Assembly (NCBI GenBank): GCA_002105175.1
Contig: MCGE01000019.1
Location: forward strand, 682,001 to 746,000
Origin: Absidia repens
Lineage: Eukaryota > Mucoromycota > Mucoromycetes > Mucorales > Cunninghamellaceae
Reading direction: 5' to 3'
DNA: 64,000 bases
Part shown: positions 48,536 through 61,757 of the stretch, in pieces
How positions within the stretch are numbered: the first letter of the stretch is position 1
How the letters are laid out: every line of letters begins with the position of its first letter
Notes under the pieces: generated by a model
The model's input: the letters and a program-made list of their open reading frames with translations, nothing else
Databases searched by the model: none
What the model was told of the DNA's origin: nothing
Program-made: the position numbers and the translations under genes

Positions 48536-48933
48536 ATGAATTCTACTTGGGCCCTCAATGAATAGGAACAAATGGTCTACCTTGAAGCCATGACCTTTCT
48601 GAACGTGAACACTACTGGGCGAAAAATGCAACTCTAAATAAATATTTGGTGCCAACACTACTCGGCTATGTTCATCTTAAGCTGGAACGTCCCACCAATA
48701 CCCTCGAATTTGTGGTATACCGCCGTGACAAACGACGTCTGGTGAACAATTTGCTGCAAGTTACTAACAACCGCCGAAATGTCAATACTGTAATCAAGAA
48801 GTTGGCCAGTGCCGACAAATGGGAACAAGCCGCCGGTGCCGCTTTTACGGTAGAGGGGCATGTTAACACTGGGTTAGACTTGGCCAACCTGTTTGGCCTG
48901 GGTGACTTGATGGCTTGGGCCACTAGTGAGTAG
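48536..48933 (+). pseudogene. Env-position small ORF, copy a (frameshifted)
   Basis: It starts MNSTWALNE, has a stop after nine codons and a frameshift, then stays open through WAKNATLNKYLVPTLLGYVH, RRNVNTVIKKLASADKWEQA and the tail LANLFGLGDLMAWATSE. An LTR starting TGTCGCAGCCCC follows 3 nt after the stop. No integrase remains upstream. See 55836-56261 for the intact form. Confidence 0.75.
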
Positions 48934-48936
48934 TTT

Positions 48937-49045
48937 TGTCGCAGCCCCGCCATAGTCGTCGACTTCTTCTCCGCTCTCCTCTTCATCTTATTACTCCGCC
49001 ACTCTAATTCTCGTCGACGACTCCCACACTCCGCTCCTTTTATTA
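48937..49045 (+). repeat. LTR family F, 5' fragment
   Basis: TGTCGCAGCCCCGCCAT...GTCGTCGACTTCTTCTCCGC matches the start of the LTRs at 52849 and 59031. It is cut at about 49045 by dispersed repeat R2. Confidence 0.65.
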
Positions 49046-49925
49046 AATTAATATATTAAAAAGAGAATGGTATCTACTTATCTAAGATAACGATCAAAGA
49101 TAAACATCTAAGATAAACATCTATGACTTTGAAATTTCCATCATTTCCTCCACTCACATCACGTAAAACCTCTCTGACTTTGTATTTTCCATCCATTTCC
49201 TCCACTCATATCACCATATCCATGTCGCTGTTACAATCTTGGGGTTATTTCTAGATAAACTATAAGTAGCATTTTACGCAACGAGCTGCGGTTTTTTTTT
49301 TCTACGCACAAACCCCCATCCCCACACACTCTGTTTTTCCACGCACATATGCCATTCCCATTCAGAGAGACAATGAAAGGTATAAAAAAGAATAATTGTA
49401 AAAAGACAAGACATGTTTAATTCTGATATAGATGCAATATAAACTATGATAACTAACGCTTAGCTGAGCTAAGGACTGTTTTAAAATGAATACTAATTTG
49501 ATGAGGGTCAAAGATCACGAATCCAAAATGGAAGGGTTTCCCCATGATGTTTGCAATGCACTTTTCAAAAGGCCCCTGCTTCAAGTTCTAACCTCTAATC
49601 CAAGATTACTAAATCCGCAGTTGAAGTTGATGTTCTAAAAAAAAAAAAAAAAGAAAGAGGAAGAAAAAAAAAAGGCCAACAGAAAATTTAAATCCATGAG
49701 AGGCGGAGTGCGAATGGTTCAGTCACCCTATTTTTCGACCTTCCATTTTTTTTTTAAAAAGTATCTATTGACGACGCGCTGAGCACGACGGTCGGCCCAT
49801 TAAAGTGCGAAATGGCGGAGGCTTTAATCCTATCCCATCGAAACCCACACTTTAACCAAAAACTGTGACACCCAGTAAATTGAAAGATTTTCAAAAGCTC
49901 CAGCGGAGTGCCAGAGCGTTTATTT
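49046..49925 (+). repeat. Dispersed repeat R2 (copy 2)
   Basis: Same order of blocks as 13263-14300, with a single GC-rich unit (about 49765-49835) instead of three. It ends GCGGAGTGCCAGAGCGTTTA exactly where integrase coding sequence begins, so it truncated that element. Confidence 0.75.
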
Positions 49926-51358
49926 ACGATATAATATCTCGATTTGGCACAATGCATATCCTGATTACGGATAATGGAAAACCTATGGTGAGTAAATTAA
50001 TCCATTCAGTTTGTTTTCAATATAATATACATCATAAGACGATCTCTGTTGGAAACTCTCAAGCAAATGGTTTAATCGAACGATTAAATTCAACTTTGGG
50101 ATCGATCATCAAAAAAATAAATAAAACGGAAAAGCTTGTTTGGGACGAATATTTGCCTTCAGCTTTGTTTGCGTACAGCATCATAAAACAAGAATCAACT
50201 GGGTACTCTCCATTTTTCCTTACGTATGGGATTGAAGCAAGAACGCCTTACGACAACATGATGGATAAACCTCAAAACATAAACACAAGAGCTTTCCAAC
50301 GAGAATGGGTCAAACCTTCCACCATAGAAATACAAATATTAGAAAGGATCCGGGAAGACGCTGCAGAAATGATAAAGAAATCACAAGCAAGTCAAAAGAA
50401 AGTAGTAGACAAGAAGGTGATGAATATCAAACGACAATGGAAGCCACCCTTTAAGATGGGCCAACTAGTAATGCTATATACAGGTATCAAGCCAAATTCA
50501 TGGGCAGGAAAAATATCTGACAATTGGGAAGGATTATATATTATACATCAAATTCACAAAAAAGCGAGGATCAAGGTTAAAATAGACACTCCATAGTAAT
50601 TTGAATTCCAAATTAGTACACGGAGAATGGGTTTATCCGGCCGAGAGTGGTACCGATCGACGCGCAATTGTTTAGAGTATGTTACACATAAGTTTAAGAT
50701 TCATCGGCCGACATTTTTCGTAAATCGAAAAGTGGCTTTAAATGTCTAACTTTATACGTGGTTTAGATACAGAGACGTACGTTACACCAATCGAAAGTGC
50801 TTGTAAAACTACATATTCTGATGTAGTTTCAAAGTTATTCGAGTTGAATTAACAAATTTATGACTTTATTTCTGGAAAATGAGAAAATGACAATTCAGGT
50901 TTCATTATTTTTTTTTACTGATTTCAGATTTATTGAAAAATTAAAGATGTCGGAACGGGTTCCAAATTTCAGGAACAAACGTCCGTGCGCAGATCGACAC
51001 AGGGAACACAAATAGATTGTCATCAGGGTCTGCAATCGTCATTTAAGCCATTTTTCGATTTACGAAAAATGTCGGCCGATGAATCTTAAACTTATGTGTA
51101 ACATACTCTAAACAATTGCGCGTCGATCGGTACCACTCTCGGCCGGATAAACCCATTCTCCGTGTACTAATTTGGAATTCAAATTACTATGGAGTGTCTA
51201 TTTTGACTTTCAACCAAAAGCGATGTACACTATAAAGGAATATAACAGACAATCCAAAAACAAAAATCATGCATGGAAATAGGCTGAAATTGTATCACGT
51301 ACGCGATGTATTCTACAATGATCAAATGATGAAAGCCTGGGCATCTCATTTGTACTAG
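49926..51358 (+). pseudogene. Ty3/Gypsy integrase 3' end, interrupted
   Basis: Integrase core from the second catalytic Asp (ILITDNGKPM) to the Glu (GLIERLNSTLG), then LPSALFAYSIIKQESTGYSP and the GPY/F-like C-terminal module NWEGLYIIHQ. The frame runs to 50567, is split by the TIR element 50568-51215 and resumes at 51224 to end HVRDVFYNDQMMKAWASHLY then stop (51356-51358). Near the join the 3' part is also shifted by one base. It lacks everything upstream of the core. Integrase inserts retroelement cDNA. Confidence 0.88.
50568..51215. mobile_element. 648-bp TIR element, 8-bp target duplication
   Basis: Inserted in integrase coding DNA with the exact duplication AAAAGCGA at 50560-50567 and 51216-51223. 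Arms 50568-50744 and 51041-51215 are inverted repeats with ends GGATCAAGGTTAAAATAGAC and, from the other side, GGTTGAAAGTCAAAATAGAC, followed by ACTCC. There is a subterminal GCCGACATTTTTCGTAAA. The core has no ORF, so it is non-autonomous. Same family as 56891-58322. Confidence 0.92.
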
Positions 51359-51463
51359 TCAAAAAAAATTTATACAGTATATATATATAACCAGGTCAAG
51401 GAAAAAGGGAAATTTCCTTTATACATGATTTTTAGTAAAACATCACCAATCTCAATCAACAAA

Positions 51464-51802
51464 ATGAACTCTACCTGGACCATAAACGAACAAGATCAGA
51501 TTACCTACCTCGAAGCCATGGCAACTCGACATTTTGCCGGGTACGAAGCTCATGCATTCGCGGAAAGGGAACACTTTTGGGCCAAGGTCGCAACTTGAAC
51601 AAATTATTTGGTGCCGACTCTGGTGGAGTACAGTCACCTGAAACTCAAACAGCCAACAAATACCGTGGAGCTCATTGAATACAAACGGGCAAGGTCCCAC
51701 TTGGTGCAAGACCTCCTTCAACACTCTGAAAACAGAAGAACTGTATGTCAACGTAGTATTACGAAAATTGGTTCATGCCGATAACTGGGAACAAGTCGCC
51801 GG
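51464..51802 (+). pseudogene. Env-position small ORF, copy b (stop, 3' truncated)
   Basis: Begins 105 bp after the integrase stop. MNSTWTINEQDQITYLEAMA, then FAEREHFWAK, one in-frame TGA (51595-51597), then NYLVPTLVEYSHLKLKQPTN and NRRTV, then a frameshift. The copy is fused at GGTGTCG to an LTR (51803), losing the LFGLGDLMAWA tail. Confidence 0.75.
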
Positions 51803-52204
51803 TGTCGTATCATGAATAAAAATGTTCTGCCTGAATAATAAGCAGAGCGGCATTTGAATAAATTCAGGTACCAGTTAATCATTTATCCATTTCAAAAACC
51901 AAACCAATGATCTCTATATAAGATATGAACATACACATATCATGATTATTTTTATTTGTAATCATTATGATATGATTTATAATCCTTATAAGAAAACCAA
52001 TGAAAAAGTTTTCTTACTAGTTCCAATTGTATTAACACCAATCATGATCAAATAACCAACATCATAGATTACCCGGTCTTAAACGTTATTTCATTTTTAT
52101 TTTGTATAAATAGTCTCTAGTATTTTATTATCAACATCAATATTAAAATAAAGATATCAAAGAATCTCACTTATTTTCTATCATACAAAACACTACATTC
52201 AACA
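51803..52204 (+). repeat. LTR family A, plus copy
   Basis: 402 bp from TGTCGTATCATGAATAAAAA to CACTACATTCAACA. The TATA region TTTGTATAAATAGTCTC is near 52103 and AATAAAGATATC near 52147. Inverted counterpart at 41888-42337. Confidence 0.8.
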
Positions 52205-52317
52205 ACAGCTGATATCTTTGATATCAATCGAGTGATTGGGTGGGGTCTAAGTGATGAATGACCCCTCATCAACGAAGCGACATCACCACTCGCGCCAAAA
52301 ACAATAAAATACAAAAA

Positions 52318-52397
52318 GGCTGAAATTGTATCACGTACCCGATGTATTCTACAATGATCAAATGATGAAAGCCTGGGCATCTCATTTGTACTATTAA
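52318..52397 (+). pseudogene. Integrase last exon-like tail (26 codons)
   Basis: Almost identical to 51279-51358 and encodes LKLYHVPDVFYNDQMMKAWA plus SHLY and stop at 52395-52397. Upstream DNA is unrelated, so only the integrase end survives in this copy. It precedes small-ORF copy c by 109 bp. Confidence 0.8.
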
Positions 52398-52506
52398 AAA
52401 CATTTTTTTTTTTGAATATACAGTATACAGTATATAGCTAGTTCAAGGAAAAGGAAGCCTCCATTCAAAAATCAATTTTTTATATACAACATCTCAAATT
52501 ACCACA

Positions 52507-52848
52507 ATGAATTCTTGGACCTTGAACAACGAGCAACAAATCACTTACTTGAAATCCAGGACCGTGCAACACTTTGCCGAATATCAATCTCACACATTCT
52601 CGGAACGCCAACACTACTGGGCGAAGCATACAGTACCACCTTAAACAACTATCTGGTGCCTACCCTTTTAGAATTTATACATCTTAAGCTGGAACAACCA
52701 TCCACTACTTTGGAAATGGTGACTTACCGACGTGAAAGACGTCGCTTAATGTTAGGATTGCTTCACGATGTCAACCGCCGCAATGTCAACACCGTGATTA
52801 GAAAAGTTGTTGATGCCGATAGTTGGGAGCAAGACGCCGGTGCCGCAG
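52507..52848 (+). pseudogene. Env-position small ORF, copy c (frameshift, 3' truncated)
   Basis: MNSWTLNNEQQITYLKSRTV, FAEYQSHTFSERQHYWAK in one frame, then a 1-2 nt shift, NYLVPTLLEFIHLKLEQPST, RRNVNTVIRKVVDADSWEQD. It ends at GGTGCCGC, fused to an LTR of family F, without the C-terminal tail. Confidence 0.75.
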
Positions 52849-53466
52849 CTACGCCATCTCGTCGACGACTTCTTCTCCGCTACTTTTTATTTTAGTATAA
52901 ATAGCTCGACTTTTTTGTTACAAATTATTTTTCTCTAGTTTTTCAGTTTTATACTTTTCTCAGTTATCAAATAAAAGTCAGTACAAAAGGTTTTTTTATA
53001 ACCATCAAGTTATCAAGTCATTTCTATTTTGCTATAGAAATCCACTTTATTTTATTTCAGAGTCAGTTATACTCTCACTTTTTATTTTTATTGAACCAGC
53101 TAAGGTCAATACTGAAATAAACGCAAAGGTAAATAAGTGATACAATTGGTTACTCTTTTTATTTAATATTCAAACATGTCATATTTATATCTTTTTCTAT
53201 AGCTAAGTGAGTCATAGTGAAATGGTTACAAATTGGGATAATCTGAAGTGATGTTGGGGAAGTAATTTAGCGGGTGATGAAGTATGAATAAAATAAGGTA
53301 TAGGGTAGTACCTGTCAAAATGTCAAAGTGAAAGAAATGCGGAGCGGGGTATAAATAAATAAAGATGTGGAAGATGGGAAATAGGTTTGGGTATCACAAA
53401 TACAACAAATACTTCTACTTTATTTTATTTTATCAAGTTTTCTTTTCAAAACTTCTTTTATTTCAA
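52849..53466 (+). repeat. LTR family F with nested solo LTR
   Basis: Starts TGCCGCAGCTACGCCATCTC, with TTTTAGTATAAATAGCTCGA as TATA region and ATCAAATAAAAGTC as poly(A) region. It passes through TTATTGAACCAGCTAAGGTC and ends near TTATTTCA. Removing the nested solo LTR (53113-53407 plus duplication) gives about 318 bp, co-linear with the LTR at 59031-59877. Confidence 0.7.
53113..53407 (-). mobile_element. Solo LTR with AATAC duplication
   Basis: 295 bp, TGAAATAAACGC to ATACAACA, flanked by AATAC at 53108-53112 and 53408-53412. 5-bp duplications and TG...CA ends are what Ty3/Gypsy integration leaves. It lies inside another LTR, so it is younger. Partial copy at 37179-37421. Confidence 0.9.
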
Positions 53467-53789
53467 GTTGGACTTTATCTATAAAAGTTCTGGTGCTCAC
53501 TACTTACTATCCAAATTCATATCTGAAACTCACTACTCATTATCAAAAATCATATTTGGTGTGATACATATCTGGTGCTCTCTCTATAAACAAAAGTCAA
53601 TTCAGGGACCACAGAAAATCAAATTTCAAATTCCGTCCAGAGAAAAAAAAATCACTCTTGACTCTCACTAAGAAAAGCCGTTCCACTTGGAAGAAAAATT
53701 AATCTATTACAAGACACTATTCTAGCTATACCAAACCATACAAATAACATCAAAAACATCAAGTCTACCATAACATATTTGGTATTGTC
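53467..53789 (+). other. Retroelement leader with candidate primer-binding site
   Basis: Directly after the LTR end comes AGTTGGACTTTATCTATAAA, which recurs after LTRs at about 59877 and 61757. TGGACTTTATCTA would pair with a tRNA 3' end and is the likely PBS. GTTCTGGTGCTCACTACT follows. Gag and most of pol are deleted here. Confidence 0.6.
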
Positions 53790-53867
53790 ATGCAGACGAC
53801 CAACGACGATTTCCTTGCTGCCGCCTTTGGCATTACTGATGCTCTTGGTTGGGCAATGGAAGAATAA
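53790..53867 (+). pseudogene. Tail-only remnant of the env-position ORF
   Basis: A 25-codon frame ending FLAAAFGITDALGWAMEE. The tail matches the Phe-x-[Leu/Ile]...Trp-Ala pattern of the full ORFs, and the frame is followed within a few bases by an LTR, as in the other copies. The ATG at 53790 may be fortuitous. Confidence 0.55.
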
Positions 53868-54150
53868 AGGTGCATAGTTATTTTCTTTCCTTTTTTTTTT
53901 TATTATTATCTTATTTTTATTGGTTCTTTCATATATATTATCTTCTCACCAAATTACTACCGCTGTCATTTTTCTAACACCTGTCACCTATGTACATAGC
54001 ACCCGCTCCTTCTTCCTACATATAATTATCCCTTATATTTTTTAGTATAAATACCCCACCTTTTTTTGCAGTAATTTCTTTTTTCTTTAGTTATTTATTA
54101 TTACATATTTATGTATCTCAACCTTTTTTTTTAAAATTCAGTACAAAGGA
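53868..54150 (+). repeat. LTR family C fragment
   Basis: TTTTAGTATAAATACCCCAC with ATTCAGTACAAAGG, shared with 61403-61757 (TTAGTATAAATACCTCCACT, AATTCAGTACAAAGG). It runs almost straight into the ATG of the next small ORF. Confidence 0.6.
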
Positions 54151-54167
54151 AAACATCACAAACAAAA

Positions 54168-54593
54168 ATGCAATCCAACTGGAGCTATACCGAGAAAGAA
54201 TTGGAGTTATACTTACGCTCCATGGCCAATGAACACTTCCGTACTTTCTTGGACTATCAATTTGCTGAAAAACAGGCCAATTGGGCCAAGGAAAATGCTT
54301 TAACAACATATCTGGTGCCAACATTGTTGGACCTCATTCATCAACGGTCAAGAAAACCGACAACATGGGAAGAGCGTAGGGTATACCTGACTAAATCCGG
54401 GGCACTAGTAAGAAGAATGTTGAAGGCTGTAGGTGATAGAAGGAGTGTCACCAATGTGTGGAAAAAGGTAAAAAACAAGGACCATTGGCTCAATCTGGGC
54501 CAGATTGAAGCAGGGCCGGCACATGTCAGTGATGACTTCAATTTAGAAAAATTATTTAATCTCGATGGACTGCTCAACTGGGCCCAAAATTAA
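54168..54593 (+). CDS. Env-position small ORF, copy d (intact, 141 aa)
   Basis: Uninterrupted 141-aa frame from ATG 54168. It begins MQSNWSYTEKELELYLRSMA, has FAEKQANWAKENALTTYLVP, TLLDLIHQ, RRVYLTKSGALVRR, WKKVKNKDHWLNLG and ends FNLEKLFNLDGLLNWAQN. Predicted mostly helical, no signal peptide or membrane segment, so not an envelope protein. An LTR begins 28 bp after the stop. It shares about two-thirds of residues by eye with copy e and the pattern of copies a-c and f. Function unknown; possibly a nucleic-acid or capsid partner. Confidence 0.8.
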   Translation: MQSNWSYTEKELELYLRSMANEHFRTFLDYQFAEKQANWAKENALTTYLVPTLLDLIHQRSRKPTTWEERRVYLTKSGALVRRMLKAVGDRRSVTNVWKKVKNKDHWLNLGQIEAGPAHVSDDFNLEKLFNLDGLLNWAQN

Positions 54594-54621
54594 GGATTGT
54601 TTTGTGACTCTGCTGGGTTAT

Positions 54622-55052
54622 TGTCGCATCATGAAAAATGATGGCATAAAAATAAAACCTGTTCCTGAAGAAATTGAAAATCCGATTAGGAACACTGCAT
54701 GATAAAAATAAAGAATCACGCAACATTGTGATAGAAGAAAAGAAAATAATGATTTACTTCATGAAATCATTAGGTCCCATAAAATAGAATAAAAGAAAAT
54801 AAAATACCCTTGCAATAACATCAATCATATCATCATACGATTATAATAAAAATAATGATCATGATAAAAAATAATAATAACAATAAACCCATGTAATATC
54901 TATTTCCAATGAAACATAAGATATAGTATATAAAGAGTGACATTTTTATTAATAAAAACCATATACAAGAATCTCACTTAATTCTACCTGTCCCACTTTT
55001 TATTTTCTACTTTTTATTTTTTTCTTTTTTTCTTTATATACGCTATTCCACA
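54622..55052 (+). repeat. LTR family B, plus copy
   Basis: 431 bp from TGTCGCATCATGAAAAATGA to CGCTATTCCACA. TATAGTATATAAAGAGTGAC (about 54930) is the TATA region. Its inverted, complete solo copy is 59353-59804. It abuts integrase sequence without a gap. Confidence 0.8.
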
Positions 55053-55729
55053 ACACCATAAAACTTATTACAGTGGGAAACTCCCAAGCAAATGGATTAA
55101 TCGAACGACTAAATTCAACCTTAGGATCCCTTATACAAAAATTAGATAAGAATGAAAAACCAAATTGGGATGAATATTTGCCAGCAGTACTTTTCGCATA
55201 CCGAACCATTAAACAAGCATCAACCGGTTATTCACCATTTTATCTCACATAAGGGCATGAATGTAGAACGCCCTATGATAATCAAATGCAAGAACCTTTG
55301 AAGATAGATAATGCATCTTTTCAACGACAATGGAACATCCGAGCAAATACGGAGGTGAAAACTTTGGAAAGAATAAGAGAGGATGCAGCGGAAATGATAA
55401 AGAAATCTCAAGAGAGTCAAAGAAAAGCGGTAGAAAAAAAAGTAATGGCAGTACATAGACAGTGGAAACCTCCATTCAAACTAGGAGATATGGTGACCTT
55501 ATACACAGGTATCAAACCAAACTCATGGTCTGGAAAAATTTCTGATAATTGGGAAGGACTATATATAATACACCAGGTTCACAAAAAGGGAACTTACACT
55601 ATCAAACAATATAATACTGATAATGCACAGGTAAAAGTCATGCACGGAAATCGATTGAAGCTTTATCATGTACCTGATGTATTCTACAACAATCAAGTTC
55701 TAAAAGCATGGGGATCCCATTTATACTAA
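55053..55729 (+). pseudogene. Ty3/Gypsy integrase 3' end with one stop
   Basis: From just before the catalytic Glu (GLIERLNSTLGSLIQKLDKN) through LPAVLFAYRTIKQASTGYSP, a single TAA at about 55249-55251, then PYDNQMQEPLKIDNASFQRQ, MIKKSQESQRKAVEKKVMAV, the GPY/F module ISDNWEGLYIIHQVHKKGTY and HVPDVFYNNQVLKAWGSHLY stop. The part after the stop is open from 55286. There is also a 1-bp shift near its start. It is 106 bp upstream of an intact small ORF. Confidence 0.88.
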
Positions 55730-55835
55730 AAACAAAAAAAAAAAAATTAATTTTTTATAAAAAGAGACACATTTTTAACCCTCAAAAACGATACACACAA
55801 TAACCACAAATACCAAAACCAATTTTTATTTCACA
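55730..55835 (+). promoter_or_regulatory. Constant-length spacer between integrase and small ORF
   Basis: 106 bp here, 105 bp at 51359-51463 and 109 bp at 52398-52506. Each has an A/T run then a TATA-like word (TTTTTTATAAAAAGAGAC here; CAGTATATATATATAACC and CAGTATACAGTATATAGC in the others), and an A/C-rich leader just before the ATG. This suggests a separate transcript start for the small ORF. Confidence 0.5.
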
Positions 55836-56261
55836 ATGCAAGCAAACTGGAGTTATGCCAAAGAAGACATGGAGCTGTACCTTCGAACCATGGCTTGCGA
55901 ACACTTCCGCACCTACGTAGACCATGCATTCGTAGAAAAGCAAGCATCCTGGGCAAAGGAGAATATCCTAATAACATCCCTTGTGCCAACATTATTGGAT
56001 TTAATTCATCAACGGTTAACCAAACCGACAACTTGGGAAGAAAGAAGAGTGTACTTAGCAAAATCTGGGGCGATTGTGAGGAGACAATTGAAAGCCATCG
56101 GTGACAAAAGGAATATCACCAATGTTTGGAAGAAAGTAAAGTCCAAGGACTCTTGGCTCAATCTGGGCCAGATTGAATTGGGGGCGACACATGTCGATAA
56201 TGATTTCAACCTACAGCAATTATTTAATTTGGATGAACTGCTCAACTGGGCACAAAACTGA
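55836..56261 (+). CDS. Env-position small ORF, copy e (intact, 141 aa)
   Basis: The reference copy: an open 141-codon frame 106 bp after an integrase stop. MQANWSYAKEDMELYLRTMA, FVEKQASWAKEN, SLVPTLLDLIHQRLTKPTTW, RRVYLAKSGAIVRRQLKAIG, WKKVKSKDSWLNLG, tail FNLQQLFNLDELLNWAQN. Conserved across all copies are Trp-Ala-Lys, [Tyr/Ser]-Leu-Val-Pro-Thr-Leu, a basic Arg/Lys stretch, Lys-x5-Asp-x-Trp and the C-terminal Leu-Phe-x-Leu-x2-[Leu/Met]-[Leu/Met]-x-Trp-Ala. It is predicted soluble and helical, and I know no family for it. Differences from copy d look mostly synonymous or conservative, hinting at selection on the protein. Confidence 0.82.
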   Translation: MQANWSYAKEDMELYLRTMACEHFRTYVDHAFVEKQASWAKENILITSLVPTLLDLIHQRLTKPTTWEERRVYLAKSGAIVRRQLKAIGDKRNITNVWKKVKSKDSWLNLGQIELGATHVDNDFNLQQLFNLDELLNWAQN

Positions 56262-56289
56262 AGTTTTTGTTAGTTATGATCCATGTGAC

Positions 56290-56640
56290 TTTTTTAGGTC
56301 AAACCCTTTCTTTTTTACCCCTTCTCTTTTTCGTTGCTTTTTGGCAACCTTTTTTTTATTCTTTTTTCATCTTTTTTTTAGCTTTTATTTAGCTTCTTTT
56401 TTATCCTTTTTTCAACGTTTTTTTTTATCTTATTTTCAACTTCTTTTTCGTCCTTTTTTTTTATCGTTTTTTAGTTCTTTTTTTATTGTTTTTTAACTGG
56501 AAATTCATTCCCAGTTGTTTAAAGAAAAGGTATAAATAGGATGAAATTCCTATTTGTATTCTTCTTCTTCAGTTAATTTTTATTTTTAAATTCTCTCAAT
56601 AAAAGGTTTTTTTTTAAAACCAATCTCAAGTCTTAGTACT
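56290..56640 (+). repeat. LTR-like region after copy e
   Basis: A T-rich stretch with repeated TTTTTTATC/TTTTTAGC words, then GGTATAAATAGGATGAAATT (TATA) and CTCTCAATAAAAGG (poly(A)) about 70 bp later. Its position after the ORF and its layout match an LTR; ends not set. Confidence 0.5.
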
Positions 56641-56740
56641 TTTATTTTGTTTGGCAGAGCTATATATCTTCGTACAGTAAACTTAACAAACCACATATAT
56701 TTGGTACACACTTTATTTTATTAACTCAAAAATAGCCGAC

Positions 56741-56824
56741 ACTACCATAACTGTTGATAATGGGTTAGATTTGGCTAACCTTTTTGGTTTGGGCGATTTA
56801 ATGGCTTGGGCAACAAGTGATTAA
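56741..56824 (+). pseudogene. Tail-only remnant of the env-position ORF
   Basis: TTITVDNGLDLANLFGLGDL followed by MAWATSD and stop. Only the last 27 codons remain, nearly identical to the tail of copy a. TTGCCGCAGTTACG after the stop resembles the start of LTR family F. Confidence 0.65.
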
Positions 56825-56890
56825 TCTTGCCGCAGTTACGTGTAATGATCATATTTTGCCGCTCATATTTTACTATTTAATTTTTATATA

Positions 56891-58322
56891 GGATTAGGTT
56901 CAAGATAGACACTCATGCGTAACTTCAAAGTAGATTTACTATACCAAAAATAGGTTTATTTGAGCCGAAAATAGTATAGATCGACTCAGAATGAAACGCA
57001 GTTTATGATCTGCATAATTTTAAATTGATTTGCCGACATTTTTTGAAAAACTTATATTGCTATTTATGCAACAGTTATCAATATTTTTGGCGATTTTTTT
57101 GTGTTCCCCGAGGTTATATACATCCTATTATTGGTCCATGATAGTTATAGAACATTATGGCAACTTTAACTTAATTTAAAATATCAAAGTTTATGTAAAA
57201 ATATATCATGAAATTGAAGTTGACATTTTTTACATTTTATTTTATAAAGCTTTCAATTTATATTTGATTTTAATAAAACTGATACACTTAATGTGGTTTT
57301 TGTTTCTCTTTCGAATGGTGGTATTTACAAGTTTGTATCTTTATTTGCTGCAGAGTTATTGCTGAAAATGTGTTTTGCTTACCGAAAATGGTAAGTATGG
57401 AAAGCGGTAGGACAGCTTCATGCAAGTTATATTAGCTCATTACGGAGTAAGTTTTAGCGTGGTGCGGTAATTTATGGTGCATATAAGCGAAAAAAATATA
57501 TAAAGAGTGGTATTTTTTTGATTATTTTGATCAAAACATGCCTGCCGTACCTCCAACTGTCCAAGTCTCTCATGCCCTTGCGTCTCCCCCTGTTGCCGCC
57601 GAGTTCCTCTGCCAGAATAACTTGGTACGCACCGCAGAAACTGGTGCAGGATTGTTTTATTCTAGCCATTGCGGTACAATCATGAAATTTAACAATCGTG
57701 ATAAGTCCTATTACATTTGGCAGTGTCCCTACTTCTCCAGTAGCGCGCACAAGTCTAAGGCCATTAGTAGCACTGATGCAGCATATTTGTTTTAAGTCTC
57801 ATATAGACGCTTTCAATACTTACCATTTTCGGAAAGTAGAACACATTTTCAGCAATAACTCTGCAGCAAATAAAGATACAAGCTCGTAAATACCACCATT
57901 CAAAAGAGCAACAAAAACCACATTATGTGTAACAGTTATATTAAAATCAAATATAAATTGAAAGCTTTATAAAATAAAATGTAAAAAATGTCAACTTCAA
58001 TTTCATGACATATTTTTACGTAAACCTTGATATTTTAAATTAATTTAAAGTTGTCATAATGTTCTATAACTATCATGCACCAATAATAGGATGTATATAA
58101 GGTCGGGGAATAAAAAAAAGCGCCAAAAATATTGATAACTATTGCATAAATAGCAATATAAGTTTTTCAAAAAATGTCGGCAAATCAATTTAAAATTATG
58201 CAGATCATAAACTGCGTTTCATTCTGAGTCGATCTATACTATTTTCGGCTCAAATAAACCTATTTTTGGTATAGTAAATCTACTTTGAAGTTACGCATGA
58301 GTGTCTATCTTGACCTTCAACC
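56891..58322. mobile_element. 1.43-kb TIR element, 8-bp target duplication
   Basis: Flanked by TTTATATA at 56883-56890 and 58323-58330. Arms of about 520 bp (56891-57411 and 57806-58322) are inverted repeats with ends GGATTAGGTTCAAGATAGAC and GGTTGAAGGTCAAGATAGAC, followed by ACTC. The core carries one small ORF. Termini and subterminal GCCGACATTTTT match the 648-bp element at 50568. Confidence 0.92.
57538..57795 (+). CDS. 85-aa ORF in the core of the TIR element
   Basis: MPAVPPTVQVSHALASPPVA, then FLCQNNLVRTAETGAGLFYS, HCGTIMKFNNRD, KSYYIWQCPYFSSS. TATATAAAGAG at about 57495 is a plausible TATA box 40 bp upstream. The Tyr-Tyr-Ile-Trp-Gln-Cys pattern after a Cys-Gly resembles FLYWCH/WRKY-type zinc modules that some transposases carry, but a second Cys pair is not evident. 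It is too short to be a transposase; it could be its DNA-binding head. Confidence 0.55.
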   Translation: MPAVPPTVQVSHALASPPVAAEFLCQNNLVRTAETGAGLFYSSHCGTIMKFNNRDKSYYIWQCPYFSSSAHKSKAISSTDAAYLF

Positions 58323-59030
58323 TTTATATATAATGATCATAGTTTACTGCCTTAACTATTTTATTCTACTCCCAACCACATTCCTTCCACCACTCTCTTA
58401 TATATCCCCTAACATCCTCTACTACTCCAACCCTTACCACTATCAGCACTTTACTTTTATTTCGTATTCATCTTTTTACTACCACCTTCCCCAATCGGAA
58501 CATTCCACCGATTTAATATAAAAAGATGAATCAAATCAAATCCAATAAAGATCATTCAATTATCAAAGTTCAAATATCACTGTTTTATTTTCATAAACAA
58601 ATCAAACACTACTATCAAAGATCCACTTATCTTTCCAGTGTTCCTTTTTTATATATCACGCTATATAATTCCTTGTCCTCATCAGACATTATTTTTGGTT
58701 GTCTCGTCTTCCATTGTTGAACCTAATTGTCTCGCTCCTAAAATGTAATTTGACCTCCGCTGTGTCCTTCGGCATTACTGTATGCCTACTTCATATTACA
58801 TTTGTCTAATTGTATATTTTAGTATTCTATATCTCTAGTTACGCCTAGTCCTCCCTCTTACTATATATACATACTTCCCTTCTGTTCTTTATTATTGTAA
58901 GACCCATTCAATAATAGTCATGCTAATCTACATTGTTCTAATCACCTTCCTTTTCTACCCATATCCCCTGACGTGCACACCTATCACTATAGGTGCAAGT
59001 ACACTTTTCCCTTCTTGTAGTGTTTACCCC
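58323..59030. other. AT-rich spacer, no gene seen
   Basis: Contains TATA-like and AATAAAG words and short open frames without recognisable motifs. It may be internal DNA of a decayed LTR element whose 3' LTR begins at 59031. Confidence 0.4.
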
Positions 59031-59877
59031 TGACATTACGCCATCTCGTCGACGACTTCTTCTTCTCCGCCTTCCTTCTCCTATCATCTTACTCCGCCAC
59101 CACAAATCTCGTCGACGACCAATTCCACTCCGCTCCTTTCCTTTTAGTATAAATAGCTCGATTTTTTGTTATAAATTATTTTTCTTTAGTTTTTTCAGTT
59201 TTTACTTTTCTCAATAGTCAAATAAAAGTTTACTCTAAAGTTTTTTTTATAAAAACATCAAGTTATCAAGTCATTTCTATTTTGCTATAGAAATCTTTAT
59301 TTATTTTATTTTCAGAGTCAGCTATACTCTTTTTTATTTTTATTGAACCAGCTGTAAAATAGCGTATATAAAGAAAAAAAGAAAAAAATAAAAAGTAGAA
59401 AATAAAAAGTGGGACAGGTAGAATTAAGTGAGATTCTTGTATATGGTTTTTATTAATAAAAATGTCACTCTTTATATACTATATCTTATGTTTCATTGGA
59501 AATAGATATTACATGGGTTTATTGTTATTATTATTTTTTATCATGATCATTATTTTTATTATAATCGTATGATGTTCTGATATTAGGTGTATGATGATAT
59601 GATTGATGTTATTGCAAGGGTATTTTATTTTCTTTTATTCTATTTTATGGGACCTAATGATTTCATGAAGTGAATCATTATTTTCTTTTCTTCTATCACA
59701 ATGTTGCGTGATTATTTATTTTATCATGCAGTGTTCCTAATCGGAATTTCAATTTCTTCAGGAACAGGTTTTATTTTTATGCCATCATTTTTCATGATGC
59801 GACACCAGCTAAGGTCAATACTTCTACTTTATTTTATTTTATCACGTTTTCTTTTTAAAAACTTCTTCTATTTCAAG
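59031..59877 (+). repeat. LTR family F with nested solo LTR B
   Basis: TGACATTACGCCATCTCGTC, TTTTAGTATAAATAGCTCGA, CAATAGTCAAATAAAAG and TTATTGAACCAGC are co-linear with 52849-53466. After removing 59353-59804 and one CCAGC the sequence runs on into TAAGGTCAATACTTCTAC and ends near CTATTTCA, followed by the leader AGTTGGACTTTATCTACAAA. Confidence 0.75.
59353..59804 (-). mobile_element. Solo LTR B with CCAGC duplication
   Basis: 452 bp with TGTAAAATAGCG and GATGCGACA at its plus-strand ends, flanked by CCAGC at 59348-59352 and 59805-59809. It gives the full length of family B and dates it after the host LTR. Confidence 0.93.
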
Positions 59878-60269
59878 TTGGACTTTATCTACAAAGGTTC
59901 TGGTGCTCACTACTTATTACCAATAACAAATCTGGTACTTTCTATCTTACATCAAATAATTTATTTGGATATTTGGTGCTCTCTATTTTGAAGACTACAA
60001 GTCAAGTAAACAAAAAAGTTCATTTCAAATTCCGATTCAGGGGAAAAATATATTTTGGTCCTCGCTGCAAATCCGTTCAAGCAAGAACAAGAATACACTT
60101 ATACACTATCCATTTGGTGTAAAATATAATTGGAACTTAACTAAAATGTTAACTTCACACCGTTACTGCGTATATAAACTCAAGTAAACCGTACATATTT
60201 GGTGCATCACTTTTACTTATTAACTCAAAAATACCCGTAACAAAAGATTAAATCAACATCGTGGATCAG
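59878..60269 (+). other. Retroelement leader remnant
   Basis: Starts with the shared AGTTGGACTTTATCTACAAA (candidate PBS TGGACTTTATCTA) and has several TTTGGTG words (TATTTGGTGCTCTC, CATATTTGGTGCATCAC). No gag frame survives. Confidence 0.5.
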
Positions 60270-60726
60270 GTGGAGTATATGTTCTCACCTCAAAAATAAG
60301 TTCTGGATTATAAATATAATAGGTAAATATATGTATAAACATTTATCCATATATTCTATATATAGATATATACTATTAAAGGTGCCACTGTGTACAACAT
60401 TACATGTTGACATGGCCCAACACGCTTTTTTTTGAAATGGCTTTTTAAACGGATGTTGAAATAGATAATGAAATAAACATTGAGCTTCTTATGTGACTGT
60501 AATAAAATTGAAAAATATACAGTATATAGCCCTAAAAAAAATATGCAATATAATGACGATAATGTTAGAAGTAGTACATATACAGAATTTTAAAAATAAT
60601 TAAAATTTACATATCAATAAAAAAGCTTTTATTTTATTATATTGATGAATGGTATGTATTACAAATTATGTGTGACCCGAAATATTATTTTTGAGAAAAA
60701 AACTCGGGTGAGAACATATACTCCAC
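60270..60726. mobile_element. 457-bp MITE-like element
   Basis: Terminal inverted repeat GTGGAGTATATGTTCTCACC at both ends, with weaker extension (CTCAAAAATAA). The interior is AT-rich without ORF. No clear target duplication. It ends 80 bp before the ATG of small-ORF copy f. Confidence 0.75.
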
Positions 60727-60806
60727 ATTAACCAAAACTATATATACCACAACAAATTCGATATCAAGTATACAATTGGATTATATTCTACACAACAATA
60801 ACCAAA

Positions 60807-61361
60807 ATGAACTCTACTTACCCTACTCCTCCCGTTAGCCCTGCCAACCCCATTGACTCTGAACCATGGTCCGACGATTGGTTAGTGACTGAAGACTTGA
60901 TAAATCTAACATCGAAAGATAAAGGTGAAATAGTCGACACCCAGCAAGACACCACTTGGCATCCAAATGTGATGGAAATGGAATTGTTATCAATGAACAT
61001 ACAACTCACTAAGACGGCCCTGGACAAGTTTAGCCAAGCCCATTGGGAGAAGAAGAACGCTTTGGAGGTCGAATTGGTTCCTCGCTTGATTGAACTAATA
61101 CACCAGATCTTCAAACCACGGCCCACTCCTGAAGCATACCGGGAATTAGCAAGGAGCTTCATACATGCCACATTAAACCAAGAACAACAGTCGGAGTCCT
61201 TCAGGCCCATCTGGAGAGAAATAAATGTCCAAGACCCATGGCTTCAAGCTGGAGGACCAGCTTCTTCTGGCCTGGCGGATGTCGACCCTATAGAAAATAT
61301 GGGTGCGTTCATCTCGTCCATTTTTGGAATCAGTTCTACCATTGGTTGGGCCATGCAGTGA
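60807..61361 (+). CDS. Env-position small ORF, divergent copy f (184 aa)
   Basis: Open 184-codon frame with an extra acidic N-terminus (PTPPVSPANPIDSEPWSDDW, TEDLINLTSKDKGEI). It then follows the family pattern: HWEKKNALEVELVPRLIELI, a helical region, WREINVQDPWLQAGGPAS and tail ISSIFGISSTIGWAMQ. Upstream there is no integrase, but CTATATATACC lies about 65 bp before the ATG, and a C-type LTR follows the stop. It is either an ORF of a different retroelement lineage or a copy now living apart from its element. It is not recognised as any known family. Confidence 0.75.
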   Translation: MNSTYPTPPVSPANPIDSEPWSDDWLVTEDLINLTSKDKGEIVDTQQDTTWHPNVMEMELLSMNIQLTKTALDKFSQAHWEKKNALEVELVPRLIELIHQIFKPRPTPEAYRELARSFIHATLNQEQQSESFRPIWREINVQDPWLQAGGPASSGLADVDPIENMGAFISSIFGISSTIGWAMQ

Positions 61362-61402
61362 CTGGTGTTCATGCTGACCGATGTTGACAAGTGTCGACAA
61401 GT

Positions 61403-61757
61403 GTCGTCCTGTACCACCCCCTCATATATAGTTAGCCTTCTTTTTTTGTTTAGTATAAATACCTCCACTTCCCCCGCAACAATTTTATTTTTTCTTTAGT
61501 TCTTATCTTCTATATATTTACTCAATCTTTTTTATAAAATTCAGTACAAAGGTTTTTTTAACCACCAAATCACTGTCTTATTTTTATTTGTTTCTATTGT
61601 CTATATAGAAACTTTCTTTTATTTTTTTGTGACTACAAGTCCCTTTTTTTTTTGTGTGTTATACACTATATTTTTATTGAACCAACAAAGGTCAATACTT
61701 TTTATTTTTATTTTATTTTACTCTTCCAAGTTTATTTTTTTATAAACTTTCTCTACA
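61403..61757 (+). repeat. LTR family C
   Basis: About 355 bp from TGTCGTCCTGTACC (start approximate) through TTTAGTATAAATACCTCCAC, ATTCAGTACAAAGG and TTTTATTGAACCAAC to TCTCTACA. It is followed by GTTGGACTTTATCTACAAAA, the shared leader with PBS-like TGGACTTTATC. Confidence 0.65.

What the first reader, a model, noticed from the sequence alone, without database searches (positions are those of the whole stretch)
48536..61361. Unrecognised ~140-aa ORF in the env position of Ty3/Gypsy elements
Six copies (48536, 51464, 52507, 54168, 55836, 60807) share a layout. Where integrase survives upstream (three cases), the ORF starts 105, 109 and 106 bp after the integrase stop. An LTR begins immediately or within about 45 bp after the ORF in the copies where it is preserved. 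The protein is soluble-looking and helical, with Trp-Ala-Lys, Leu-Val-Pro-Thr-Leu and Asp-x-Trp landmarks, so it is not an envelope protein. I know no described fungal Ty3/Gypsy accessory protein that fits.
Basis: partly seen in the sequence, partly recalled or inferred. Interest (0 to 1): 0.85.

Follow-up and report, generated by a model that had tools for sequence, protein, structure and literature searches.

The report
Swappable regulator gene in fungal retrotransposons
A family of fungal jumping genes carries a small extra gene that overlaps its own control region, and gene and control region appear to be swapped together between otherwise near-identical elements, as if each pair were a private switch.

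Summary
The ORF is a real gene. The window lies in Absidia repens, a Mucorales fungus (named proteins sit on contigs of equal length). Of 24 long integrase matches of one Ty3/Gypsy clade, 24 have this ORF ("ORF4") 128-249 bp downstream; of 31 distant integrase matches, 0 do. Within families dN/dS is 0.05-0.20. It has no Pfam family or clear structural match. It does not end before the LTR: its last 22-47 codons lie inside the 3' LTR. A TATA box behind a poly(A) tract precedes it.

ORF4 plus the LTR stretch up to the LTR TATA box behaves as an exchangeable cassette. Pairs with gag/pol/IN dS 0.07-0.13 have ORF4 dS 1.2-1.65. Integrase and ORF4 trees reject each other. ORF4 similarity predicts upstream-region similarity beyond the LTR core (partial Mantel r 0.60, p 0.0005). 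One ORF4 family has palindromic sites about 39 and 102 bp upstream of TATA.

Best explanation: a self-encoded regulator of its own LTR, working like foamy-virus Tas or plant VANC. DNA binding is inferred, not shown. Possible kin are fused to integrase in Rhizopus.

The parts
55836..56261 (+). ORF4, 141 aa, family F1 (MQANW...)
   Evidence: Open frame; dN/dS 0.07-0.11 in three pairs, a fourth saturated
55286..55729 (+). Integrase C-terminal fragment upstream of ORF4
   Evidence: clade integrase match at C11:737037-737699 = window 55037-55699
55734..55763 (+). A tract (55734-55746) and internal TATA box (from 55756), 80 bp before the ORF4 ATG
   Evidence: TATA within 20 nt after the first A run in 8 of 8 spacers, 0.35 expected from shuffles
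56192..56530 (+). Start of the 3' LTR (by register): ORF4 C-terminal codons to 56261, then T-rich upstream region (UAS) 56262-56530
   Evidence: Register with the L009 LTR
56531..56539 (+). LTR TATA box (TATAAATAG)
54168..54593 (+). ORF4, 141 aa, family F1; LTR starts at about 54524; upstream region passes into unrelated sequence soon after the ORF
60807..61361 (+). ORF4, 184 aa, family F7; TATA-like site at 60739; LTR from about 61280; UAS 61362-61453 with two ACAAGTGT; LTR TATA 61454
48536..48933 (+). Broken ORF4, family F2 (open piece 48646-48933); exact palindromic UAS site at 49009
51464..51745 (+). Broken ORF4, family F2 (open N-terminal piece 51464-51595); downstream replaced by other sequence
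52507..52850 (+). Broken, shortened ORF4, family F2; exact palindromic site at 52857, LTR TATA at 52896
59044..59155 (+). F2-type upstream region without an ORF4 beside it: exact palindromic sites at 59044 and 59107 (63 bp apart), TATA 39 bp after the second

Best explanation
ORF4 is a self-encoded, sequence-specific regulator of the element's own LTR promoter, most likely an activator or anti-silencer. It is transcribed from an internal TATA promoter between integrase and ORF4 (inferred). Its helical core would recognise family-specific sites just upstream of the LTR TATA box (inferred from covariation), and its acidic C-terminal tail would contact the transcription machinery (inferred). The C-terminus is encoded in the 3' LTR, and reverse transcription copies that U3 to both ends (established knowledge). 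Regulator gene and target sites are therefore inherited as one block, and this block is exchanged between elements (the exchange is shown by sequence). Each exchange would give an element a new private control system.
For: (1) Constraint: dN/dS 0.05-0.20 within families. (2) Linked to one integrase clade: 24 of 24, against 0 of 31 distant integrase matches. (3) Internal TATA 1-9 nt behind an A tract and 74-113 nt before the ATG; 8 of 8 spacers, 0.35 expected. (4) Exchange: ORF4 dS 1.2-1.65 against 0.07-0.13 in gag/pol/IN of the same pairs. Left break 31-96 bp behind the IN stop in 7 of 7 pairs; right break within -52 to +39 bp of the LTR TATA in 6 of 8 pairs. (5) Integrase data reject {L016,L032} and {L022,L026}; ORF4 data reject {L026,L031,L032} (AU p 6e-41 or less). 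(6) Upstream-region similarity follows ORF4 more than the LTR core: partial r 0.60, p 0.0005, against 0.22 for the core, 21 cassettes; L040 is the clearest case. (7) F2 site columns 76-97% identical where ORF4 fourfold sites are 32-58%. TCTCGTCGACGAC occurs 38 times in the genome, reversed control 0. In 13 of 14 fetched instances it lies 37-39 or 101-102 bp upstream of TATA; 8 of 10 close pairs are 62-63 bp apart, six helical turns. (8) Acidic tail in 22 of 22 ORF4s.
Against: No binding or expression data. Core net charge ranges from -13 to +7, so the core is not generally basic. No known DNA-binding fold was matched. ORF4 and the upstream region are neighbours, so plain linkage can produce part of the covariation; some of the 21 cassettes are near-duplicates. 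The palindrome is absent from the F2 IN-ORF4 spacers printed, unlike foamy virus sites. L031 and L046 have similar ORF4s (0.51) but no detectable upstream similarity. The right break lies inside ORF4 in L010/L013 and 82 bp past TATA in L016/L019. L053/L054, not F2, have one CTCCGC. Upstream repeats do not exceed shuffles in L009, L013, L026 and L031. Possible Rhizopus kin are fused to integrase, which suggests another role.
Confidence: 0.5

Rival explanations
1. ORF4 is an integrase partner or targeting domain. In some Rhizopus-type elements it is a C-terminal extension of integrase; in Absidia it has become a separate protein that steers or tethers integration. Cassette exchange then changes target choice, and the upstream motifs ride along by linkage.
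For: The C-terminal extensions of P0012 (Rhizopus microsporus) and P0051 (no organism given) score 14.9 and 13.9 bits with the ORF4 profile, above all 2000 shuffles; hhalign with A2 gives E 1e-4, probability 58%. ORF4 follows integrase in 24 of 24. ORF4 loci are clustered: 21 of 57 within 20 kb of another, 2.5 expected.
Against: P0045 does not beat its own shuffles and P0038 (Rhizopus arrhizus) has no reported score; hhalign with A3 gives only 1.8% probability, E 0.027. Two recently inserted elements without integrase (L018, L019; LTRs 99.9% identical) keep ORF4. The internal TATA and the fixed sites near the LTR TATA are unexplained.
Confidence: 0.2
2. ORF4 is a virion, RNA-export or host-factor-binding accessory protein. 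Its covariation with the upstream region is pure linkage, and the upstream sites serve host transcription factors.
For: ORF4 overlaps the start of U3, so any exchange of the 3' end moves both. The short leucine-rich C-terminus could also be an export or docking motif (recalled resemblance). Cer1 CERV acts in RNA export (PMC10309623, search listing with start of abstract only).
Against: Linkage alone does not explain why F2 site columns stay 76-97% identical while linked ORF4 fourfold sites are 32-58% identical, nor why right breaks gather at the LTR TATA in 6 of 8 pairs.
Confidence: 0.16
3. ORF4 is a self-encoded repressor or copy-number controller, like Ty1 p22 in effect or a phage repressor in logic. 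Exchange of ORF4 plus its sites escapes control by relatives (heteroimmunity).
For: Same cassette data. The 20 sampled loci fall into seven ORF4 types of 1-5 copies each. Ty1 p22 also comes from a sub-genomic transcript (PMC8458377, listing with start of abstract), and Ty1 control evolved by recombination (PMC7055915, abstract).
Against: ORF4 shows no relation to gag. The acidic tail reads more like an activator's. No copy-number experiment exists.
Confidence: 0.12

Closest known systems
Foamy virus (Spumaretrovirinae) Tas/Bel1 with internal promoter
   Same: Regulator gene near the 3' end, internal promoter directly upstream of it, acidic activation domain, target sites in U3 (passages of PMC3798896)
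   Different: No env; no sequence comparison with Tas was made; the F2 palindrome is absent from the internal spacers printed; ORF4 is exchanged as a cassette; DNA binding untested
VANC anti-silencing proteins of Arabidopsis VANDAL transposons
   Same: Transposon-encoded protein that evolves together with short repeated motifs in noncoding parts of its own family (passages of PMC5735166)
   Different: DNA transposons, not LTR elements; VANC binding is shown, ORF4's is not; here gene and sites form one exchangeable block overlapping the LTR
Additional ORFs (aORFs) of plant LTR retrotransposons (Grande, RIRE2, Retand, env-like)
   Same: Extra conserved ORF between pol and 3' LTR, with a regulatory role proposed (passages of PMC7264820 and PMC11963269)
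   Different: Those described are antisense or env-like; ORF4 is sense, hydrophilic, runs into the LTR and has no family match
Ty1 copy number control (p22/p18)
   Same: Fungal retrotransposon encoding its own regulator from a sub-genomic transcript; evolves by recombination (abstracts or starts of abstracts)
   Different: p22 is a gag fragment acting on capsids; ORF4 is a separate gene without relation to gag

Membership tests
Ty3/Gypsy (Metaviridae) LTR retrotransposon (the carrier) | Domain order PR-RT-RNaseH-IN between LTRs | tested here: met
   Pfam domains in that order in L026; direct LTR pairs of 94.5-100% identity in 20 of 20 loci
Chromovirus | Chromodomain at the integrase C-terminus | tested here: not met
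   No chromodomain listed for integrase or ORF4 of L026 and L016 at E up to 1
Retroviral envelope (env) | Hydrophobic, membrane-spanning protein | tested here: not met
   GRAVY -0.42 to -0.84 in 12 of 12 ORF4s; helical model without an obvious membrane span; no dedicated membrane predictor was run
Foamy virus Tas-type regulator | Expressed from an internal promoter upstream of the gene | tested here: inconclusive
   TATA placement in 8 of 8 spacers; no transcript data
Foamy virus Tas-type regulator | Binds sites in both U3 and the internal promoter | tested here: inconclusive
   Family-specific sites upstream of the U3 TATA; absent from the F2 internal spacers printed; binding itself not testable here
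VANC-like anti-silencing protein | Binds own-family motifs and removes silencing marks | not testable with these tools
   Motif covariation only
Rhizopus-type integrase C-terminal extension (proposed kin) | Sequence homology over the helical core | tested here: inconclusive
   hhalign E 1e-4 (58%) with A2, E 0.027 (1.8%) with A3; profile scores above 500 own shuffles for P0012 and P0051, not for P0045; P0038 without reported score

The most novel reading that the evidence does not exclude
LTR retrotransposons of Mucorales carry a heteroimmunity-like regulatory cassette: a regulator gene joined in sequence to its own promoter targets, exchanged whole between elements, so that one genome holds many mutually blind control systems on nearly the same gag-pol backbones. 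It would be a eukaryotic counterpart of the exchangeable immunity region of lambdoid phages.
Probability: 0.28. Interest if true: 0.9.

Novelty: new variant of a known kind. Interest (0 to 1): 0.75.

Why it matters
If true, fungal Ty3/Gypsy elements encode their own sequence-specific promoter regulators, and exchange of gene plus target would explain how related elements coexist or evade control in one genome. The family-specific palindromes and cassettes give ready natural test pairs. It would also explain a set of unnamed Absidia proteins and possibly the long integrase tails of some Rhizopus-type elements.

Tried and rejected

Protein search with one ORF4: 10 candidates, none significant. 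With the 12-row alignment: six, being the window's own protein, one of Absidia cylindrospora and four of Absidia repens. IMG/VR scan with one integrase: none.

Idea that TTTGGTGCTCA near the A tracts is a regulator site: given up, because it matches the primer-binding-site region behind the 5' LTR.

Repeat statistics in upstream regions: exact 8-mer repeats exceed shuffles in L016, L019, L022 and L032, not in L009, L013, L026 or L031, so 'every family has significant repeats' is not claimed.

Relaxed selection as the cause of ORF4 divergence: rejected, since synonymous sites diverge too while dN/dS stays low. Between families dN/dS is 0.26-0.36 at near-saturated dS and is not used.

A weak ORF4-profile hit (E 5e-4, 16 bits) lies on the opposite strand of L035, an element of another clade; not followed up.
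Full report
WHAT IS THERE. The window is part of contig C11 of a 47.4 Mb genome. An ORF4-profile search returned four proteins named Absidia repens on contigs of 151171, 411754, 2241197 and 209019 bases, and the window's own protein on a contig of 815227 bases. These lengths equal C51, C30, C34, C44 and C11 of this genome. The host is therefore very probably Absidia repens (Mucorales, Cunninghamellaceae). A search with the 55836 protein gave 69 matches in the genome; searches with three other ORF4s reached further loci.

THE ELEMENT. I fetched 20 loci of 10 kb around ORF4 matches. All 20 have a pair of LTRs, 15 of 20 pairs at least 99% identical. The order is LTR (about 780-930 bp), gag (about 360 aa), a PR-RT-RNaseH ORF (about 1010-1036 aa where open) ending SRLGY and a stop, an A tract, integrase as its own ORF (about 450-515 aa where open), a second A tract, ORF4, LTR. 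In some copies all four ORFs are open; in others gag, pol or integrase is interrupted. L018 and L019 lack integrase but keep ORF4. Six further loci of this clade were picked by reverse transcriptase, without regard to ORF4 (L029-L034, RT to 4.5 kb downstream): two have integrase and ORF4 (L031; L032, whose ORF4 frame is cut short at the polypurine tract) and four lack a full integrase and any ORF4-profile hit at E 0.01. The other three loci of that fetch (L035-L037) belong to distant clades; none has ORF4 behind integrase, though L035 has a weak profile hit on its opposite strand.

ORF4 AND THE LTR. In 20 of 20 loci the 3' LTR begins inside ORF4, which runs 22-47 codons into it; the G-rich polypurine-like tract just before the LTR lies within ORF4. 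Matches covering only the last 20-45 residues fit 5' or solo LTRs (inference).

IS IT A GENE? One search scored 89 of 206 integrase candidates. Of 24 matches with at least 55% identity over at least 400 aa (some with stops inside), 24 have an ORF4 locus 128-249 bp downstream on the same strand. Of the 31 matches with 26-33% identity, 0 have one within 2 kb (tested against 57 ORF4 loci, C-terminal-only matches left out). The remaining 34 rows are shorter clade pieces and were not counted. dN/dS in ten F1 pairs is 0.05-0.13 (two of the ten saturated), and 0.20 for L016/L019. An ORF4 relative is held for Absidia cylindrospora (P0002, E 3e-24), and a weak one lies in an Absidia glauca protein (P0067, E 0.004 among 86 proteins).

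THE PROTEIN. Twelve ORF4s share seven invariant residues. The better AlphaFold2 model (10 rows, mean pLDDT 80, pTM 0.54) is a helical core of about 110 residues, a low-confidence linker and a short low-confidence C-terminal helix. The tail behind the D-x-W landmark is acidic in 22 of 22 ORF4s (net -3 to -10) and ends in an aromatic/leucine W[A/G] motif in 18 of 22 by pattern; L038 and L055 are cut short, L050 and L051 differ. The core charge varies from -13 to +7, which is against a simply basic DNA-binding surface.

OWN PROMOTER. Behind the integrase stop comes a run of 13-40 A's, then a TATA box within 1-9 nt, then 74-113 nt to the ATG. In eight spacers examined, a TATA lies within 20 nt of the first A run in 8, against 0.35 expected from shuffles of the remainder. 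This looks like a poly(dA:dT)-TATA polymerase II promoter (established fungal promoter architecture, recalled). No transcript data were available.

THE CASSETTE. Pairs of elements nearly identical elsewhere differ sharply in ORF4. L010/L013: integrase dS 0.08, ORF4 dS 1.45. L009/L011: gag 0.07, ORF4 1.24. L016/L019: gag 0.09, pol 0.10, ORF4 1.65. Sliding identity in 100-base steps falls from 96-100% in integrase to 62-76% in ORF4 and returns to 98-100% in the F1 pairs; between L026, L031 and L032 it falls from mostly 80-95% to 32-62% and returns to 89-97%. Fitted breaks: left 31-96 bp behind the integrase stop in 7 of 7 pairs. Right: -38, -52, -9, +39, +31 and -4 bp from the LTR TATA in six of eight pairs; the exceptions are L010/L013 (inside ORF4) and L016/L019 (+82). 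Trees conflict: integrase data reject L016+L032 (AU p 6e-41) and L022+L026 (2e-71); ORF4 data reject L026+L031+L032 (5e-55) (the groups were named after the identity tables had been seen, and L031 is a long branch in the ORF4 tree).

GENE AND SITES MOVE TOGETHER. Over 21 cassettes (some near-duplicates, three with partial ORF4s), upstream-region similarity correlates with ORF4 similarity (r 0.74), and still does after controlling for the LTR core (partial r 0.60, permutation p 0.0005), while the core adds little (0.22). L040 is the clearest case: its LTR core is closest to L026/L031/L046, its ORF4 to L038/L016/L042 and its upstream region to L019/L041/L042. Against this, L031 and L046 share ORF4 (0.51) but no upstream similarity, and L022/L026 match only at z 4.5.

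THE F2 SITES. F2 upstream regions carry CTCCGC and the palindrome TCGTCGACGA. CTCCGC is present in 9 of 9 F2 regions read (L016, L019, L038, L040, L041, L042 by script; L043, W48536, W52507 by eye), in 0 of the 15 non-F2 regions scanned by script, and once each in L053 and L054, which are not F2. The palindrome with at most one mismatch is in 3 of the 6 F2 and 0 of the 15 non-F2 regions scanned; exact copies are also printed for L043, W48536 and W52507. Exact TCTCGTCGACGAC occurs 38 times in the genome, its reversed control 0; most of those places were not fetched. In fetched sequence, 13 of 14 instances lie 37-39 or 101-102 bp upstream of a TATA box (one place counted twice, window and L002); the fourteenth, at window 49009, has none within 180 bp. 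Of ten close pairs, eight are 62-63 bp apart (the others 66 and 52), six turns of DNA. Motif columns are 76-97% identical between F2 members whose ORF4 fourfold sites are 32-58% identical; the other upstream columns are 48-79% (motif columns were defined on L042, so this is not fully independent). F7 members L048 and W60807 share ACACTTGT in opposite orientations.

MECHANISM. The simplest account is a trans-acting regulator and its targets inherited as one block. Reverse transcription copies the 3' U3 into both LTRs, so a swap of this block changes gene and promoter of the daughter element at once. Shown: the overlap, the constraint, the exchange, the covariation, the fixed site positions in the F2 family. 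Inferred: DNA binding, activation, use of the internal TATA. I give 0.50 to a positive regulator or anti-silencer, 0.12 to a repressor, 0.20 to an integrase partner, 0.16 to an unrelated accessory role with linkage.

POSSIBLE KIN IN RHIZOPUS. The integrase search returned many 448-449-aa separate integrases, several named Rhizopus, and 629-722-aa forms of the same group. The C-terminal regions of P0012 (Rhizopus microsporus) and P0051 (no organism given) score above all 2000 shuffles with the ORF4 profile (14.9 and 13.9 bits; best shuffle 10.2); P0045 (9.2) does not, and P0038 (Rhizopus arrhizus) gave no reported score. hhalign gives E 1e-4, probability 58%, with A2 but only E 0.027, 1.8%, with A3. 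I call this likely, not proven.

KNOWN SYSTEMS. Foamy virus Tas (internal promoter, acidic activator, U3 sites; passages of PMC3798896) and VANC (motif coevolution; passages of PMC5735166) are the closest in working. Plant aORFs are the closest in position (passages of PMC7264820 and PMC11963269). A survey of fungal LTR elements (passages of PMC3248453) mentions chromodomains and composite elements; the passages seen describe no such ORF. Paper searches that turned up no description: (open-licence PMC only, listings seen).

LIMITS. One genome; related eukaryote genomes could not be searched. The 20 main loci were chosen by ORF4 match. Motifs were noticed before they were tested. ORF4 and upstream region are adjacent, so linkage contributes to the covariation.

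Noticed in passing
pol-IN spacers of L009, L011, L013, L016, L019, L022, L023, L026, L031, L032: In this clade integrase is a separate ORF behind a stop (SRLGY*) and an A tract, unusual for Ty3/Gypsy (recalled); how it is expressed is open.
   Followed up: partly
L016, L022, L026, L031, L032 junction spacers: Primer-binding-site-like TTTGGTGCTC copies, in L032 with an LTR-end-like CCGTAACATA, sit at pol/IN or IN/ORF4 junctions near the A tracts; possible template-switch scars.
   Followed up: partly
L018, L019; L029, L030, L033, L034: Recently inserted integrase-less elements keep ORF4 (L018, L019), while other pol-bearing copies lack a full integrase and ORF4.
   Followed up: partly
60807-61361 N-terminus; P0005; P0012: LI[DN]LT(S/T) stretches in F7 ORF4 N-termini and in the Rhizopus microsporus integrase tail resemble SUMO-interaction motifs (recalled motif).
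   Followed up: no
C11:736-786 kb (window end and beyond); C38; C46; C14: ORF4 loci are clustered: 21 of 57 within 20 kb of another, 2.5 expected, at most 10 in 500 random placements; the window end is one such nest, perhaps heterochromatic.
   Followed up: partly
56885-58328: A large inverted repeat, arms 56885-57406 and 57808-58328 (93-97% complementary, 401 bp between), lies between the ORF4 copies.
   Followed up: no
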